Source: Solibacillus sp. R5-41
GTDB taxonomy: Bacteria; Bacillota; Bacilli; Bacillales_A; Planococcaceae
Assembly (NCBI RefSeq): GCF_002736105.1
Contig: NZ_CP024123.1
Coordinates: 1,356,001-1,420,000, forward strand
Length of the DNA stretch: 64,000 nt
Direction: 5' to 3'
Under the pieces are notes generated by a model that saw nothing but the letters and a program-made list of their open reading frames with translations, was not told where the DNA came from and did not search any database. The stretch's first letter is position 1. Each line of letters starts with the position of its first letter. The position numbers and the translations under genes are program-made. Of the stretch, positions 6,607 through 61,574 are shown in pieces.

Positions 6607-7458
6607 GTGGAGAAAATCGAGAATTGTAGCCTTATATTAGAAGGTGGGACATTTCGTACGGTGTATACTGCAGGTGTTTTAGATGCCTTGATGAAAGAAG
6701 AAATATATATGCCTTATATCGCGGCAATTTCAGCAGGTGCGATTAATGCGGTATCCTATATGTCCAAACAGCCGGAGCGTACATTACGTGTTTTAACGAC
6801 GTATCGAAATGACCCTCGCTATATGGGTATTCGCAATATTATAAAGGAAAAAAGTATTTTTGGTTTAGACTTCGCTTATAATGTTGTGCCAAATGAACTG
6901 GAAATCTTCGACTGGAATGCTTATTATCACTATCCTGGTGAGGTGGAATTTGGAGTAACAAATGCGTACACTGGAAAAGTAGAGTATAAAGATGCTTTCC
7001 AAATGACAAAAAACTGCGATATTTTACAAGCAACTTGTGCGATTCCGGTTCTATTTCCTGAAATAAAAATCGGCAATGCCCCTTATTATGATGGAGGATT
7101 GGCCGATCCGATTCCGATTAATCGCGCTATTGAAAAAGGCTTCCACAAGCATTTAATTGTACTGACAAGGGAGCCGGGTTATATAAAGGAAGCTTCGAAA
7201 ACAAGTCAAATTACAATGCAACTATTCAAAAAGCGTTACCCAAGAATGGCTGCGGCATTGAATAACCGTGTAGATCGGTATAATGAAACATTAAATCAAA
7301 TTTCCGAAATCGAACAGCAGGGCAATGCCTTTATTTTCAAGCCGGAAAATGCATTGAGAAGCTTTGAAAGTAAAATTGACCAAATGAAAATGAATTATGA
7401 AATGGGTTATGAACAAGCGACGAAAAGAATGCATGAATTGAAGGGCTTTTTGGTTTAG
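6607..7458 (+). CDS. Patatin-like phospholipase
   Basis: This 283-residue patatin-fold lipid acyl hydrolase has a Ser-Asp dyad: the nucleophile elbow ISAGAIN (G/A-x-S-x-G type) near residue 42 and Asp in YYDGGLADPIPI near residue 160. The oxyanion stretch is EGGTFR rather than the usual GGGxxG, as in the bacterial YjjU/RssA-like branch. There is no signal peptide, so it is probably cytoplasmic. The GTG start at 6607 follows AGGGTGAT; no in-frame ATG lies close by. The physiological substrate is unknown. Confidence 0.85.
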   Translation: MEKIENCSLILEGGTFRTVYTAGVLDALMKEEIYMPYIAAISAGAINAVSYMSKQPERTLRVLTTYRNDPRYMGIRNIIKEKSIFGLDFAYNVVPNELEIFDWNAYYHYPGEVEFGVTNAYTGKVEYKDAFQMTKNCDILQATCAIPVLFPEIKIGNAPYYDGGLADPIPINRAIEKGFHKHLIVLTREPGYIKEASKTSQITMQLFKKRYPRMAAALNNRVDRYNETLNQISEIEQQGNAFIFKPENALRSFESKIDQMKMNYEMGYEQATKRMHELKGFLV

Positions 7459-9340: not shown

Positions 9341-9525
9341 CTTGCTTCAGCAGAAGTCTTCCACTTCTACAAGTGATGATGAATGAAAAATATGCAACTT
9401 AAAACAGTGAGGACTCAAACCCCGGCTGAAGCAAATTAATGCCCTGGCGGATGTCCAGATTTTTAAGGGGAGCTTTTCGAGCATGCTTGAAAAAATCTGG
9501 ACGCAATTACGCCGAGGCGTAATTA
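9341..9525 (+). repeat. Modular palindromic intergenic repeat, copy A
   Basis: Module 1 (9341-9434) is a fold-back closed by TTGCTTCAGC pairing with GCTGAAGCAA. It contains an AGAAGT/ACTTCT hairpin and an ACTCAAACCCC stretch. Module 2 (9446-9525) contains CCAGATTTTT paired with AAAAATCTGG around a palindrome centred on GCATGC. It ends with an ATTACGCC/GGCGTAAT hairpin. Related copies occur at 23412-23719, 33616-33701 and 48549-48629 (reversed). A module 1 fragment is at 29749-29806, and end-hairpin-only copies are at 11136 and 55265. Confidence 0.75.
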
Positions 9526-9593
9526 ATTTTTGTAAACCTATTTTCCGGTTTGGGCTTTCCAAGTGGAACTGCTAAAAATCGGAGGACAAAACA

Positions 9594-23411: not shown

Positions 23412-23719
23412 CTTGCTTCAGCAAAAGTCCTCCACTTCTATAAGTAGCAAATGAATGCAAAATTTGCCCTTAATTTAGTGTGGGTTCAAACCCCAGCTGA
23501 ATAGGGGAATTCAGGCAAAAGGAAGGGAACAAAGGCTAAATCCGTCACGTCCTGTGACAACGCCTTTGTGATCAACGTCGTGTTGACCCGCGTCGTGCGG
23601 CAACGCCTGATTGACCAACATCATGTTGGCCCAAAGCCCCAGGCGTATGACACAGATTTTTAGAGGATTTTTTCGAGCAAGCTCGAAAAAATCTGGACAA
23701 GAGTTAGTCGAGGTTTAAT
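23412..23719 (+). repeat. Modular palindromic repeat, copy B, with hairpin array
   Basis: Module 1 (23412-23501) repeats the CTTGCTTCAGC start and has a GGGTTCAAACCCC hairpin like a tRNA T-arm. Bases 23531-23640 insert a string of short hairpins: GTCACGTCCTGTGAC, TCAACGTCGTGTTGA, CCGCGTCGTGCGG and CCAACATCATGTTGG. Module 2 (23640-23719) has CAGATTTTT/AAAAAATCTG around TTCGAGCAAGCTCGAA. No gene lies in this 360-base gap between uspA and gdhA. Confidence 0.75.
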
Positions 23720-23725
23720 TAATAA

Positions 23726-33570: not shown

Positions 33571-33615
33571 CTTCATCTTCAATCAATAGAAAAAGCCTAT
33601 TGATTGAAGATGAAG
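33571..33615. repeat. Perfect 18-base stem hairpin
   Basis: CTTCATCTTCAATCAATA (33571-33588) pairs perfectly with 33598-33615 across a 9-base loop. There is no T-run after it. It directly abuts modular repeat copy C. Confidence 0.8.
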
Positions 33616-33701
33616 CCTCCGGTGGATGTCACAGATTTTGAAGGGAGTGAATTGTGCAAGCACAATTCAAAATCTGGACGCAATTACGCCAAGGCGTAAT
33701 T
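33616..33701 (+). repeat. Modular palindromic repeat, copy C (module 2)
   Basis: The GGTGGATGTCACAGATTTT lead-in is followed by the palindrome TGAATTGTGCAAGCACAATTCA, AAATCTGGACGC and the end hairpin ATTACGCC/GGCGTAAT. The central palindrome differs in sequence from copies A and B but is still self-complementary. The repeat ends about 30 bases before the UvrA-like start. Confidence 0.75.
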
Positions 33702-33728
33702 CATTGCAAAGAAGAGAGGATGAATCAT

Positions 33729-37314: not shown

Positions 37315-38226
37315 TTAAATGGTATTTTCTGAAGGTACTGTTTCAGGAATCTTTTTCATTGCTACGAATTGTTCTAGCTGTGCAACAAAATTTCCGATTA
37401 ATATAAAGGCACCACCGATAAGTAATTGAGTCGTTAATGTTTCCCCTAAAAATATCAGCGCAAAGATTGCGGCAAAAATAGGTTCTAGTGAGAAAATTAA
37501 TCCCGTATGTGTAGGGGATGTATATTGTTGTACAACAGCCTGTGCAACAAAGCAAAACGCGGTACAAATAACACCTAACCCTAATATAGCAACCCAGCCT
37601 AATGTAGTAGATGGCAATTGCGGTGTTTCAAAAAATAATGTGAAAATCGCTCCAAAAACACCGGCGACACCTAGCTGATATACCCCGTATGAAATCGATT
37701 CAACACTTTTAGTAAATTTACTATTTAAGATTAAATAGATCGAATAACCTACTGCGGCAACCGCAACTAAAATGTCTCCAGTTTGGAATGTTAATGAATC
37801 TTTCATTGTTAACGTTGTAATACCAATCATCGTACATACAATTGCAAAGCTGACTGCACGAGAAGGTAAGCGTTTTTCGATAAAGCTTGAAAAAATCGGT
37901 ACAAGCACTACCGTTAAGCTTAAAATAAATCCTGCATTCGCAGCGGATGTTGTTTTTAATCCAAATAATGATAGTGCAAATACCGTAAATAGTAGGAACC
38001 CTTGTATAGATGCGTAAATGATTGTTTTTTTATTAATGCGCAACATCTTTGGTAAAAAGATTAGCCCTGCAATTATAAATGCAATTATGCATCGTAAAGC
38101 AACAACGTTATAGGCTTCTAATACGTCTAACCCCATGACCATAAATGTATACGAAAGCCCCCAAAACATTGTTACGATAATCATTAATAAATTTGCTTTT
38201 CCTTGTAAACTCAAAGATGTCACCAC
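37315..38226 (-). CDS. EamA/DMT family transporter
   Basis: This 303-residue protein has ten predicted membrane segments in two EamA repeats. The first begins LLMIIVTMFWGLSYTFMV. The second shows SLEPIFAAIFALIFLGE, the usual family motif. It probably exports a metabolite or amino acid. Two GTG codons (38226, 38223) follow GGAG. It is divergent from a LysR regulator, which probably controls it. Confidence 0.88.
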   Translation of the reverse strand: MVTSLSLQGKANLLMIIVTMFWGLSYTFMVMGLDVLEAYNVVALRCIIAFIIAGLIFLPKMLRINKKTIIYASIQGFLLFTVFALSLFGLKTTSAANAGFILSLTVVLVPIFSSFIEKRLPSRAVSFAIVCTMIGITTLTMKDSLTFQTGDILVAVAAVGYSIYLILNSKFTKSVESISYGVYQLGVAGVFGAIFTLFFETPQLPSTTLGWVAILGLGVICTAFCFVAQAVVQQYTSPTHTGLIFSLEPIFAAIFALIFLGETLTTQLLIGGAFILIGNFVAQLEQFVAMKKIPETVPSENTI

Positions 38227-48539: not shown

Positions 48540-48548
48540 ATACTAATC

Positions 48549-48629
48549 AATTACGCCTCGGCTAACTTTTGTCCAAATTTTTTCGAACTAGTTCAATAAA
48601 CTCCTCTAAAAATCTATGACATCCTCCGG
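48549..48629 (-). repeat. Modular palindromic repeat, copy D (module 2, reversed)
   Basis: Read on the minus strand this is CCGGAGGATGTCATAGATTT, the palindrome TTGAACTAGTTCGAA, AATTTGGAC and GCCGAGGCGTAATT. It matches module 2 of copies A-C. Its centre is again a different palindrome. The first arm of the end hairpin is degraded. Confidence 0.7.
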
Positions 48630-48643
48630 GTCTTTAACTGGTA

Positions 48644-49531
48644 TTACGTTGAAGTTTCGACTTTCTTTACTGTTTGTTCGGGGATGTACACGGTGTAAAA
48701 GATGCTACCGAAAATTAATATGATGCCGATTGTTTGTAACAAAGTAGGGCGGAATGATAGCAAAATGGCATCTAATAAAATGGCAACGACCGGGTCAACA
48801 AAGACGAGTACCGAAACAAGCACGGTAGATAAATTACGAATGCTATCAAAAAATAAATAATAAACAAAGCCGGTATGAATAAAGCCTGTGCCTAAAATAT
48901 AGAGCCAGTTGCGCTCAGTTAAGCTTTCGAACGCCGAAAAATCACATAGTGGGAAAAGCATCAAAATCCCAACAGTTGTCTGAATAAATGTCAATGCATA
49001 CGAAGATAGCCCTTTAATTGTTTTACTTGTAAACATCGTCAACGCGTAAAAAATGGCGGAAAGTAGCGCCCATACAAAGCCTGAGTTTAAAAACTGCGAT
49101 GTGGAAGTAAAACTATCCAAACCAATGATTAATAGACTACCAAAAAAACAAATAACCGTTGCAAATATGGAACGAATGCTCATTTTTTCTGCTAATAACA
49201 TTGATCCAAGCATCAAGACAAAAATAGGGGCTAAATTATAAATGGAAATAGCCACCGAAATCGACATTACTTCAAAGGCTTTAAATAAAAATACCCAGTT
49301 TAATACGATAAAAACACCACAAAGGATTGTTTTTAATACTTCCGATTTTTTCCACACTTCTATTCGATGTCCACCTGTCAAAAACCAAAGAGTACCTAGA
49401 AAGAGCGATGCACAAATACAGCGGACAAATACGAGTTCAACAGCAGGTAATCCTGTTTGAGTTGTAAAAAATCCAATCGAACCAAATATCGCCATTGCAA
49501 TACTCAGTTTAATTATTGCACTTACATTCAT
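48644..49531 (-). CDS. EamA/DMT family transporter in the proline operon
   Basis: This 295-residue protein has ten predicted membrane segments in two EamA repeats (first LSIAMAIFGSIGFF; SIYNLAPIFVLMLGSMLLAE is the typical fourth-segment motif). It starts 38 bases after the proA stop on the same strand with no terminator between, so it is probably the third gene of the T-box-controlled proBA operon. Export of an amino acid is a reasonable but untested guess. The ribosome site is weak. Confidence 0.85.
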   Translation of the reverse strand: MNVSAIIKLSIAMAIFGSIGFFTTQTGLPAVELVFVRCICASLFLGTLWFLTGGHRIEVWKKSEVLKTILCGVFIVLNWVFLFKAFEVMSISVAISIYNLAPIFVLMLGSMLLAEKMSIRSIFATVICFFGSLLIIGLDSFTSTSQFLNSGFVWALLSAIFYALTMFTSKTIKGLSSYALTFIQTTVGILMLFPLCDFSAFESLTERNWLYILGTGFIHTGFVYYLFFDSIRNLSTVLVSVLVFVDPVVAILLDAILLSFRPTLLQTIGIILIFGSIFYTVYIPEQTVKKVETST

Positions 49532-54040: not shown

Positions 54041-54062
54041 AATATTTTTAGGAGATGAAAAA

Positions 54063-55034
54063 ATGAATAAAAAATTAAGTTTTTTATTATTTTCTATTAT
54101 TGCGACAATTGCAATATTAGCTGCTTGTGGTAATAAAGAAGAAAAAAAGGTAGATTCTGCAAGTGCAGAGAAAGAAACAACAACTTCTGAAACAAGAGTA
54201 ATTGAGCATGTTTTAGGTAAAACCGAAATTAAAGGCACACCTAAAAAAATCGTAACATTATATCAAGGCGCTACTGATACTCTTTTAGAATTTGGTGTAA
54301 AGCCAATTGGTGTAGTTGAATCTTGGGCTGAACAACCAATTTATGAATATTTAAAATCAGATTTAGAAGGTGTTACTATTGTAGGTTTGGAAACTCAACC
54401 AAACTTAGAGGAAATTGCAGCTTTAAAACCTGATTTAATAATCGCAACGCAAGTAAGACATGAGGAAATTTACGAGCAATTATCACAAATCGCACCAACA
54501 GTAGTAAATACTACTTTATACGACATTAAGGAAACTACAAATCTAATAGGGCAGGCAATTGGACAAGAAGATCAAGCCGAAAAATTAATATCTGATTGGG
54601 AATCTCGAGTTGCTGACTTTAAAGAAAAAATTGCAACGAATGAAAATTATCCATTAAGCGTAGCTGTTACAAATTACCGTGCAGATCATGCACGTATTTA
54701 TGTACAAGGATTCGCTGGTTCAATTCTTACAGAGCTTGGTTTTAAAGAGCCAAATAATCTACAAGGACAAAATTTAGAGATTGTGAAATTAAATGATAAA
54801 GAATCAATTTCACAAATGAATGCAGATGTAATTTTCCAGTTCATGGAGGACGACGCAGCTGTTAAAAATACTTATAAAGAATGGTCTGAACATCCACTTT
54901 ATTTAAATTTGGATGCGGTTAAAAATGAACAAGTATTTACAGTAAATGAAATTGTTTGGAACTTAGCAGGTGGTTTACAAGCGGCAAACTTAATGTTGGA
55001 TGAATTATATACGCATTTCAAACTTGAAAAATAA
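54063..55034 (+). CDS. Iron-siderophore ABC transporter substrate-binding lipoprotein, copy 1
   Basis: This 323-residue lipoprotein has a signal peptide with lipobox LAAC (Cys at about residue 22). A Thr/Ser-rich linker and a class III (FecB/BtuF-type) binding fold follow, with TLYQGATDTLLEFGVKPIGVVE, ALKPDLII and NEIVWNLAGG. It captures a ferric siderophore at the outer membrane face and hands it to the permease. B. subtilis YfiY (schizokinen/arthrobactin) is a plausible relative. AGGAGATG precedes the ATG. A nearly identical copy follows at 55470. Confidence 0.9.
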   Translation: MNKKLSFLLFSIIATIAILAACGNKEEKKVDSASAEKETTTSETRVIEHVLGKTEIKGTPKKIVTLYQGATDTLLEFGVKPIGVVESWAEQPIYEYLKSDLEGVTIVGLETQPNLEEIAALKPDLIIATQVRHEEIYEQLSQIAPTVVNTTLYDIKETTNLIGQAIGQEDQAEKLISDWESRVADFKEKIATNENYPLSVAVTNYRADHARIYVQGFAGSILTELGFKEPNNLQGQNLEIVKLNDKESISQMNADVIFQFMEDDAAVKNTYKEWSEHPLYLNLDAVKNEQVFTVNEIVWNLAGGLQAANLMLDELYTHFKLEK

Positions 55035-55042
55035 GTATTAAT

Positions 55043-55075
55043 AAAAATGGGGAATCGATCTGATTCTCCATTTTT
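55043..55075 (+). terminator. Intrinsic terminator after binding protein 1
   Basis: An AAAAATGG/CCATTTTT stem with an inner GAATC/GATTC stem ends in T. The equivalent hairpin follows copy 2. Confidence 0.8.
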
Positions 55076-55077
55076 CA

Positions 55078-55105
55078 ATTAAATAAGAGGTTATGGTATG
55101 TTTAC
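55078..55105 (+). pseudogene. Duplicated stub of the permease start
   Basis: TAAATAAGAGGTTATGGTATG matches bases 56487-56507, the ribosome site and start of the first permease gene, but is followed by unrelated sequence and an early stop. It marks the right boundary of the tandem duplication. The rest of 55105-55340 shows no gene apart from the hairpin at 55265. Confidence 0.7.
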
Positions 55106-55264
55106 GATTTACTAGATTAGGGTAGATAAAGTATGAATGATTGGAATCTGTCGTTCGTTGCACTTGTTTCGGCAAAACAGCGCATAAGCCTAGATCACGT
55201 ATCATAAGTAAGAAAAACGGATTATGGTCAACCAGATTGTCTAATAACAGAGGGCAAGTGTCTA

Positions 55265-55297
55265 AACAATTACGCTGAGGCGTAATTGTTTTTTTTT
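55265..55297 (+). repeat. Repeat hairpin with T-run (terminator-like)
   Basis: AACAATTACGC/GCGTAATTGTT with a 4-base loop and a T-run is the same unit as at 11136-11166, here between the two binding-protein copies. Confidence 0.75.
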
Positions 55298-55359
55298 AGT
55301 CAAGCACATATGTTAGCCAAGACTCTTTATAAAATTATGCTAAATTATAAAAAAAAGTA

Positions 55360-55449
55360 ATTGAAAATAATTATCAATTAAAATATAATTGCAAATGGCA
55401 ATGAAAATCATTATTAATAAAAATTTATGCGATGAAAATCATTATTAAT
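55360..55449 (+). promoter_or_regulatory. Fur-controlled promoter of siderophore-binding protein 2, three Fur boxes
   Basis: TTGAAA (55361-55366) and TATAAT (55384-55389) are 17 bases apart. Fur boxes lie at 55360-55378, 55400-55418 and 55431-55449. Boxes 2 and 3 are a 31-base tandem duplication. The -10 is a full consensus, better than in copy 1 (TATACT). Confidence 0.85.
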
Positions 55450-55469
55450 AAAAATCTAGGAGATGAAAA

Positions 55470-56441
55470 ATGAATAAAAAAATTAGTGTTTTACTATTTT
55501 CTATTATTGCAACAATTGCAATTTTAGCTGCTTGTGGTAATACAGAAGAAAAAAAAGTGAATTCTGCAAGTGCAGAAAAAGAAACAGCTACTTCTGAAAC
55601 AAGAGTAATTGAGCATGTTTTAGGTACAACAACAATCAAGGGCACACCTAAAAAAATTGTAACATTATATCAAGGTGCTACGGATACACTTTTAGAATTT
55701 GGTGTGAAGCCAATTGGTGTAGTTGAATCTTGGGCTGAACAACCAATTTATGAATATTTAAGATCAGATTTAGAAGGTGTTACTATTGTAGGTTTGGAAA
55801 CACAACCAAACTTAGAGGAAATTGCAGCTTTAAAACCGGATTTAATAATCGCATCGCAAGTAAGACATGAGGAAATTTACGGACAATTATCACAAATTGC
55901 ACCAACAGTAGTTAGTGCTTCTGTAGATGACATTTACGAAACGACAAGTCTAATAGGGCAAGCAATTGGACAAGAAGATCAAGCTGGAAAATTGTTATCA
56001 GATTGGGAAAGCCGAGTTGCTGACTTCAAAGAAAAAATTGCAACGAATGAAAATTATCCATTTAGCGTAGCTGTTACAAATTACCGTGCAGATCATGCAC
56101 GTATCTATGTACAAGGATTCGCTGGTTCAATTCTACAAGAGCTTGGTTTTAAAGAGCCAAAAAATTTACAAGGGCAAAATTTAGAGATTGTGAAATTAAA
56201 TGATAAAGAAACAATTTCACAAATGAATGCAGATATAATTTTCCAATTCATGGAGGACGATGCAGCTGTAAAAAAAACTTATAAAGAATGGTCTGAACAT
56301 CCACTGTATTTAAGTTTGGATGCGGTTAAAAATGAACAAGTATTTACAGTGAATGAAATTGTTTGGAACTTAGCAGGTGGTATACAAGCGGCAAACTTAA
56401 TGCTGGATGATTTATATACGCATTTCAAACTTGAAAAATAA
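55470..56441 (+). CDS. Iron-siderophore ABC transporter substrate-binding lipoprotein, copy 2
   Basis: This 323-residue lipoprotein is about 91% identical to copy 1 by eye (about 28 differences). It has the same lipobox LAAC and binding-fold motifs. Differences cluster in the linker and at residues about 149-160 (NTTLYDIKETTN in copy 1, SASVDDIYETTS here), which could alter the ligand pocket or reflect drift. It has its own Fur promoter and lies directly before the permease operon, so it is the native partner by position. Confidence 0.9.
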   Translation: MNKKISVLLFSIIATIAILAACGNTEEKKVNSASAEKETATSETRVIEHVLGTTTIKGTPKKIVTLYQGATDTLLEFGVKPIGVVESWAEQPIYEYLRSDLEGVTIVGLETQPNLEEIAALKPDLIIASQVRHEEIYGQLSQIAPTVVSASVDDIYETTSLIGQAIGQEDQAGKLLSDWESRVADFKEKIATNENYPFSVAVTNYRADHARIYVQGFAGSILQELGFKEPKNLQGQNLEIVKLNDKETISQMNADIIFQFMEDDAAVKKTYKEWSEHPLYLSLDAVKNEQVFTVNEIVWNLAGGIQAANLMLDDLYTHFKLEK

Positions 56442-61374: not shown

Positions 61375-61502
61375 TACGTCGCCTTCCACTGCAGCGACGT
61401 ACCATATCCGGAACGCTTCAGAATCTAAACTCCCGCAATTGGAACACAGGCTAATGTCGCCACGTCCTGCGGCATTAGCCTGAGTGACCAACATCGTGTT
61501 GG
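61375..61502 (+). repeat. Hairpin-rich repeat mosaic
   Basis: Three hairpins are seen: TACGTCGC/GCGACGTA (61375-61382 with 61394-61401), CAGGCTAATG/CATTAGCCTG (61447-61456 with 61473-61482) around the CACGTCCTG loop, and CCAACATCGTGTTGG (61488-61502). The last two match units in the array at 23531-23640; the first resembles 20275-20297. The 61115-61574 gap has no gene. Confidence 0.65.
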
Positions 61503-61574
61503 CCTTGCCCTTATATAAAGCATACAGATACGTCGTACAAACATTTGCAAAAAAGCTGTGTTGTAGGAAGAAAT

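What the first reader, a model, noticed from the sequence alone, without database searches (positions are those of the whole stretch)
9341..9525. Modular palindromic repeat family whose central stem varies but stays paired
Module 2 occurs at 9446-9525, 23640-23719, 33616-33701 and reversed at 48549-48629. The outer parts are conserved (GGATGTC-CAGATTTT, ATCTGGAC, ATTACGCC/GGCGTAAT). The middle differs in every copy, yet each middle is self-complementary: TCGAGCATGCTTGA, TTCGAGCAAGCTCGAA, TGAATTGTGCAAGCACAATTCA, TTGAACTAGTTCGAA. Change with retained pairing in four independent copies argues for selection on a folded RNA or on a DNA palindrome used by a protein. This is not what decaying copies alone would give. 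I do not recognise a named family.
Basis: partly seen in the sequence, partly recalled or inferred. Interest (0 to 1): 0.72.

Follow-up and report, generated by a model that had tools for sequence, protein, structure and literature searches.

The report
Jumping hairpin repeats with exchangeable cores
The repeats are copies of a small piece of mobile DNA without genes that folds into hairpins, inserts after short T-rich signals such as TTTAA, swaps its inner hairpins between copies, and is present in well over a hundred copies in this genome while sitting at different places in the closest relative.

Summary
The repeats are real and far more than four: 131 places in the host genome match the 3' end, reversed control 0. 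The unit is larger than 'module 2': a mobile element of about 190 nt with a left hairpin, a purine bulge, an exchangeable central hairpin and a terminal hairpin. Pairing shows real covariation (148 both-side-change cells against 46 in shuffles, 0/500), but the four window copies are two central-stem classes plus decay, not four independent changes. It moves: at 24 of 24 host sites whose flanks could both be placed, the nearest relative lacks it. It inserts mostly 3' of TTTAA/TTTAT, without terminal inverted repeats or a consistent target duplication. Its left hairpin carries a segment complementary to that target, and flank and segment covary at two of three positions. Rfam's Bacillaceae-1 RNA (RF01690) is a cassette inside it and inside two other repeats. 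In sampled genomes it is nearly confined to one family. No constant partner was found: Y1 transposase is absent from 10 of 25 copy-rich genomes. Best reading: a guide-carrying, folded-strand, non-autonomous element resembling IS200/IS605 derivatives and BOX elements; mobilising enzyme unknown.

The parts
9341..9527 (+). Element copy 1, complete (left hairpin with inner hairpins, linker, outer stem, purine bulge, central stem TCGAGC/GCTTGA, terminal hairpin)
   Evidence: Row 1 of alignment A1; absent at the orthologous site of G011
9446..9525 (+).
   Evidence: part of the 3' module of model R1
23412..23723 (+). Element copy 2, with Bacillaceae-1 cassettes in place of the closing arm of the left hairpin; starts directly after the T-run of a hairpin that looks like an intrinsic terminator (read by eye)
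   Evidence: (insertion relative to G011)
23520..23586 (+). Rfam RF01690 Bacillaceae-1 RNA, 75.3 bits, inside copy 2
33577..33704 (+). Element copy 3, short left hairpin (CTTCAATCAAT/ATTGATTGAAG), central stem class AATTGTG/CACAATT
   Evidence: orthologous site in G011 unresolved
48546..48643 (-). Element copy 4, 5'-truncated (left arm not recognisable, closing AGTTAAAG arm kept), placed directly after a TAA stop codon (48644-48646)
   Evidence: absent at the orthologous site of G011
61435..61502 (+). Second Bacillaceae-1 RNA hit (51.5 bits), in a different repeat context

Best explanation
The repeats are copies of a non-autonomous mobile element, about 190 nt when complete and without large cassettes (127-272 nt among 24 copies compared with empty sites; 312 nt for window copy 2). 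SHOWN: conserved folded architecture with covariation; insertion mostly 3' of a pre-existing T-rich TTTAA/TTTAT-type site, often the TAA stop codon or a T-run; no terminal inverted repeats and no consistent target duplication; turnover of all resolved sites between two related genomes; inner hairpins exchangeable, including Bacillaceae-1 cassettes. INFERRED: the element moves as a folded single strand. The left hairpin is closed by the target itself: the 5' flank TTTAW pairs with a WTAAA-type segment just 3' of the hairpin, so the element carries its own guide for target choice. The terminal hairpin followed by GAT marks the 3' end. Any central palindrome or cassette that leaves the outer stems intact is tolerated, which is why the middle varies yet stays paired. 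Most likely chemistry: strand transfer of the IS200/IS605 (HUH) kind on single-stranded DNA, by an enzyme supplied in trans that is not a recognisable Y1 transposase in many hosts today.
For: Covariation. Empty sites: the element is missing in G011 at 24 of 24 sites with both flanks placed, of at most 100 host sites put in; in a 224-kb against 200-kb comparison 0 of 12 resolved copies (of 20) have a core at the orthologous place. In 15 of 20 scored junctions the AA/AT after the T-run scores as already present in the empty site. Boundaries: T at -1, -2, -3 in 63, 58 and 52 of 70 L1 copies, no clear preference further out; 3' end conserved through GAT (90, 95 and 90 of 100), next base T 59. Flank-guide association: at -1 p=3e-6 in 158 copies and p=1.5e-9 in the 146 whose hairpin arms truly match (131 of 131 T flanks have guide A; of 15 non-T flanks 6 are Watson-Crick matched by their guide: C/G in L006, L044, L160, L165, G/C in L167, A/T in L209); at -3 p=5e-4 and 1e-4. 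Cassettes; in one syntenic copy shared with Solibacillus palustris the host copy carries a Bacillaceae-1 cassette that the other lacks.
Against: No Y1_Tnp in the host and none in 10 of 25 copy-rich genomes; no reverse transcriptase in copy-rich G001 and G002. The guide lies 3' of the hairpin, not 5' of its foot as in IS200/IS605 (PMC6006769, passages). Flank -2 against guide shows no association (p=0.34, 0.14), and 9 of 15 non-T flanks at -1 do not pair with their guide (e.g. L013, L019, L073, L102). The target-dinucleotide test between subfamilies is only suggestive (L1: AA 8, AT 2, tie 5; L2: AT 4, AA 1; p=0.09), and in 5 of 20 junctions the dinucleotide did not score as pre-existing. Some of the 24 sites align poorly beside the junction (53674, 496776, 2809964). 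None of these tests corrects for relatedness of copies. No transcript or transposition data.
Confidence: 0.6

Rival explanations
1. RNA-mediated insertion: the transcribed folded RNA is reverse transcribed and inserted downstream of terminators and stop codons, as group IIC introns do (recalled).
For: Sense orientation behind stop codons (21 of 100 copies abut the TAA exactly, crude ORF calls) and T-runs (30 of 100 with TTTT at -1); strong RNA-like covariation.
Against: No RVT_1 in G001 and G002, which have 65 copies each; no group II intron RNA match in the window at Rfam gathering score; G.T and A.C mismatches in similar number.
Confidence: 0.15
2. A functional cis-acting RNA (3' UTR stabiliser, terminator or sRNA) kept by selection at each locus.
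For: Nearest upstream gene within 150 nt is on the same strand in 48 of 72 cases; Rfam lists the Bacillaceae-1 cassette as an sRNA gene; in the one syntenic shared copy the element is better conserved than its flanks.
Against: 24 of 24 resolved sites are not shared with the nearest relative; copies seem to decay without strand-specific protection of pairs (the terminal stem leans 27 to 18 towards G.T).
Confidence: 0.13
3. Palindrome maintenance without selection: one decaying element whose stems are re-perfected by template switching (quasipalindrome correction) or gene conversion between copies.
For: Apparent cassette replacement within an otherwise nearly identical syntenic copy fits conversion between copies; similar G.T and A.C counts.
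Against: Compensated changes sit in shared subfamily classes over many loci and several genera, and the left hairpin, whose arms are about 80 nt apart, covaries too.
Confidence: 0.12

Closest known systems
BOX elements of Streptococcus (PMC3049150, passages read)
   Same: Small composite repeats built of outer modules and exchangeable inner modules; one inner module (boxB) is shared by two different outer families in S. suis, as Bacillaceae-1 is shared here; suggested to be parasitic; predicted to fold as RNA.
   Different: BOX inner modules form tandem arrays; here inner parts are single hairpins or nested hairpin cassettes. No sequence comparison with BOX was made. A target-complementary segment is not mentioned in the passages I read.
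Non-autonomous derivatives of IS200/IS605, and REP sequences (PMC6006769, passages read; the name PATE for such derivatives is recalled)
   Same: Hairpins near both ends, no terminal inverted repeats, no consistent target duplication, short target 5' of the element, covariation between target flank and an internal segment.
   Different: Guide-like segment is 3' of the left hairpin, not a tetranucleotide 5' of its foot; no Y1 transposase in the host and in 10 of 25 copy-rich genomes.
Bacillaceae-1 RNA, Rfam RF01690 (Weinberg 2010, PMC2864571, only its line in Table 1 seen)
   Same: A 67-nt cassette inside copy 2 and inside many other copies is this family.
   Different: Modules 1 and 2 are not part of it; RF01690 is listed as an sRNA gene, whereas here it behaves as an exchangeable insert of at least three repeat families.
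bcr1 repeats of the Bacillus cereus group (named in PMC2267715, passages; details recalled)
   Same: Structured mobile repeat in Bacillales.
   Different: No sequence comparison was made; a target duplication is reported for bcr1 (recalled), none seen consistently here.

Membership tests
MITE of a DDE transposon | Terminal inverted repeats | tested here: not met
   Left end AACTTGATTCAGC and right end GGCGTAATTGAT are not inverted repeats of each other (alignment A1, by eye)
MITE of a DDE transposon | Target-site duplication | tested here: not met
   Junctions against empty sites show none consistently
IS200/IS605 derivative | Hairpins near both ends, insertion 3' of a short target, no duplication | tested here: met
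IS200/IS605 derivative | Target recognised by base pairing with an internal guide | tested here: inconclusive
   Covariation at -1 and -3, none at -2; subfamily test p=0.09
IS200/IS605 derivative | Guide 5' to the hairpin foot | tested here: not met
   Pairing segment lies 3' of the left hairpin; definition from PMC6006769
IS200/IS605 derivative or REP | Y1 HUH transposase (PF01797) in the host | tested here: not met
   None in G000; absent in 10 of 25 copy-rich genomes
REP/RAYT system | RAYT-type gene flanked by the repeats | tested here: not met
   20 loci with Y1 genes: left and right marks together only in L306; a few others show single weak marks
Bacillaceae-1 RNA | Match at Rfam gathering score | tested here: met
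   Only for the cassette at 23520-23586 (75.3 bits) and for 61435-61502; not for modules 1 or 2
Group II (IIC) intron derivative | Rfam group II intron match | tested here: not met
   No such match in the window at gathering score
BOX-like modular repeat | Constant outer modules with exchangeable inner modules | tested here: met
BOX element proper | Sequence homology to boxA/B/C | not tested
   No BOX sequence was compared

The most novel reading that the evidence does not exclude
A family-wide, gene-less mobile element that brings its own guide: a segment beside its left hairpin pairs with the 5' target (TTTAW), so that subfamilies with different guides enter different targets. It is moved by an enzyme class that is neither a recognisable Y1 transposase nor a reverse transcriptase, and it serves as a dock for interchangeable hairpin cassettes, one of which is the Rfam 'sRNA' Bacillaceae-1, shared with at least two unrelated repeats.
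Probability: 0.3. Interest if true: 0.78.

Novelty: new variant of a known kind. Interest (0 to 1): 0.6.

Why it matters
It explains a repeat that makes up well over a hundred insertions in single genomes of one family and that I found described in none of the papers I could search. It reinterprets an Rfam 'sRNA' as an insert of mobile repeats in this genome. It offers a sequence-testable case of target choice by base pairing inside a 190-nt element, and an open question that can be answered: which enzyme moves it.

Tried and rejected
Y1/RAYT partner: searched in the own genome, in 121 family genomes and in 25 selected genomes. Presence does not track copy number by eye; 20 Y1 loci were scanned for element marks, with one neighbouring copy (L306). 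Reverse transcriptase partner: genus search, not constant. Autonomous long version: looked for lone left, middle or right ends in the held loci; those I looked at were truncated or decayed, and the one long span read (L111) holds no mobility gene that I recognised. Strand test by G.T against A.C: no clear asymmetry. Replication-strand preference: 69 of 100 co-directional, but flanking genes are 170 of 222, so nothing is separable (crude ORF calls, origin assumed at position 1). Long insertions in L204 and L123 held other ORFs. Paper searches found no description of this repeat; the library holds open-licence PMC papers only.

A1 used 63 of 78 full-length candidates (left-end score at most 1). 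A3 left out one false row (L188) present in A2. In one search, 11 sites were resolved, 9 called empty and 2 of other length (1287743, 3078765) whose printed ends show no element; these two were outside the filter. One search scored 20 of the 24 sites (gap limit). One search's 158 copies include a few false left ends (seen); one search repeats the test without them. Of 99 Bacillaceae-1 hits over the cut-off (150 of 532 candidates scored, so a lower bound), 42 could be assessed for context: 29 near a known core, 7 more with another module, 6 without.

Full report
What is there. The four module-2 copies are present as described. A search of the host's 4.28-Mb chromosome with a 29-nt pattern of the 3' end, up to 3 mismatches, gives 131 places and none for the reversed pattern. 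A slightly shorter pattern gives 141 in the host, 159 in its nearest relative G011, 65 in each of two further congeners (G001, G002), and at least one in 44 of 121 genomes of the family. A covariance model of the 3' module finds it in 150 of 250 genomes drawn at order level; every listed genome is of the host's family. In a class-level draw it finds 6 of 151 genomes, two of them from one other family.

Anatomy. A full copy reads, 5' to 3': target-like TTT; AACTTGATTCAGC (subfamily L1) or ATCTTCATTCAGC (L2); inner hairpins; GCTGAATCAAGTT or GCTGAATGAAGAT; AAA; GCCTCCGGCGGATGTCA; CAGATTTT; a purine-rich bulge (GAAAGGAG); a central palindrome; AAAATCTG; GACGC; AATTACGCC-GA-GGCGTAATT; GAT. On 63 full-length copies my named structure of 49 pairs is formed in 91.7% of cells, with 148 both-side-change cells against 46.4 in shuffles (0/500) and at most 64 in slid controls. 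Pair 5/109 of the left hairpin changes A-U to U-A in 14 rows, pair 9/105 has both sides changed in 16, and central pair 161/173 changes C-G to U-A in 16. The shuffles do not correct for relatedness.

The middle. Of 163 standard-geometry copies 138 have a central stem of at least 6 bp, against 401 of 3260 shuffles. There are few stem classes, with variants inside each. By eye, window copies 1, 2 and 4 belong to one class and copy 3 to another. In some copies the middle is not a short palindrome but a Bacillaceae-1-like cassette (L019, L025, L029). In Sporosarcina other hairpin cassettes sit in loops, even inside one another (L137, L164). The middle is therefore an exchangeable insert that must leave the outer stems able to pair.

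It moves. The host and G011 are 82-92% identical in most aligned blocks. A 200-kb comparison lists ten length differences of the selected size; eight are this element, four in each genome. Of 20 cores in these stretches 12 could be resolved, and none has a core at the orthologous place. With more of G011 fetched, both flanks could be placed for 24 of at most 100 host sites, and the element is missing at all 24. At 539189 G011 holds Bacillaceae-1-like hairpins instead, at 1015058 perhaps a remnant, and a few sites align poorly. The other sites lie outside the fetched G011 sequence or had no placeable flanks.

Where it inserts. T is found at -1, -2 and -3 in 63, 58 and 52 of 70 L1 copies, with no clear preference further out. 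The 3' border is sharp after GAT. In 15 of 20 scored junctions the AA or AT after the T-run scores as already present in the empty site; clear cases are 442694, 532538, 348884, 344315, 493983 and 1279203. Of 100 host copies, 21 start exactly at the TAA stop of a gene on the same strand and 30 follow TTTT (gene calls are simple ORFs). Several follow terminator-like hairpins by eye, as window copy 2 does; this was not counted.

Guide. The three bases before the element and the three bases after the closing arm of the left hairpin are complementary in the common form (TTT/AAA). Over 158 copies the association of T with A is p=3e-6 at -1, p=0.34 at -2 and p=5e-4 at -3. After removing false hairpins (146 copies with at least 10 matching arm positions) it is p=1.5e-9, 0.14 and 1e-4. 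There, all 131 T flanks have guide A. Of 15 non-T flanks, 6 pair with their guide (C/G in L006, L044, L160, L165; G/C in L167; A/T in L209) and 9 do not. The two subfamilies differ at the next position too (AA against AT), and empty sites tend to carry the matching pair (L1: AA 8, AT 2; L2: AT 4, AA 1; 5 ties; p=0.09). I read this as target choice by pairing. The alternative, that the flank travels with the element, is made less likely by the empty sites that already hold the T-run, but it is not excluded at every site (at 6684 the bases before TAA differ from the empty site).

Bacillaceae-1 RNA. Rfam RF01690 lies in copy 2 and at 61435, and 103 times in the host, 99 over the cut-off (lower bound). 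Of 42 hits whose surroundings I held, 36 lie with another module of this element. Four others (L105, L106, L108, L255) sit in a second repeat family, and L109 and window 61435 in a third. In one syntenic copy shared with Solibacillus palustris, nearly identical in sequence, the host copy has the cassette in place of part of the left stem and the other does not. This is one case, at a locus of high identity (91.6%), possibly transferred.

What moves it. Y1 transposase was not found in the host, in G001 and G002, or in 10 of 25 copy-rich genomes, which include these three. Reverse transcriptase was not found in G001 and G002; the host and G011 have one distant match each. One of 20 Y1 loci has a copy beside the gene (L306). 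The mobilising enzyme is unknown.

Decay after insertion. Mismatched pairs are 45 G.T to 47 A.C in the outer stem and 27 to 18 in the terminal stem. A copy protected as an RNA should favour G.T on its own strand; the outer stem does not and the terminal stem leans slightly that way. I place the selection mainly on mobility of the source lineages, not on function of each copy.

Known or not. No paper of the searched library prints its sequence strings, and word searches gave no description. It works most like BOX elements in its modularity and like IS200/IS605 derivatives in its ends and target. It fails defining features of the latter (guide position, Y1 gene), so I file it as a new variant of a known kind.

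Noticed in passing
window 54059-56441: Two tandem 323-aa ORFs (54063-55034 and 55470-56441), 92% identical over 300 nt, each preceded by AT-rich repeats of the GAAAATCATTATCAAT type (Fur-box-like, recalled).
   Followed up: no
L105, L106, L108, L255 (G000 3219371, 3597907, 3683616, 1282092): A second interspersed repeat (GGAAGGCGACTCCTGCGGGAAC ... GCCCGCGGAAAGCGTCCGGACCGGAATGGAAATCAAC) that carries the Bacillaceae-1 cassette inside.
   Followed up: partly
L109 and window 61380-61560: A third repeat context around Bacillaceae-1 (GCGGCGTACCAAATCCGGAA-like), without modules of the described element.
   Followed up: partly
L066 (G000 3008305/3008314); also G074:C1:4159258/4159265 and G120:C63:51828/51835: Matches on both strands around one terminal palindrome, as if two elements stood back to back and shared the terminal hairpin.
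   Followed up: no
G011 at the site orthologous to G000 539189: Where the host has the element, G011 holds hairpins of Bacillaceae-1 type in the reverse orientation.
   Followed up: no
L115, L130, L215 (records titled Arthrobacter beigongshangensis REN13): Typical copies of this repeat in records labelled as an actinobacterium; the label or the assembly is probably wrong.
   Followed up: no
L306 (G122): One element copy ends right beside a RAYT-like Y1 gene, the only such case in 20 Y1 loci.
   Followed up: partly
window 37874-37902 and 55255-55291: Partial matches to the centre and to the terminal hairpin, perhaps decayed fragments.
   Followed up: no
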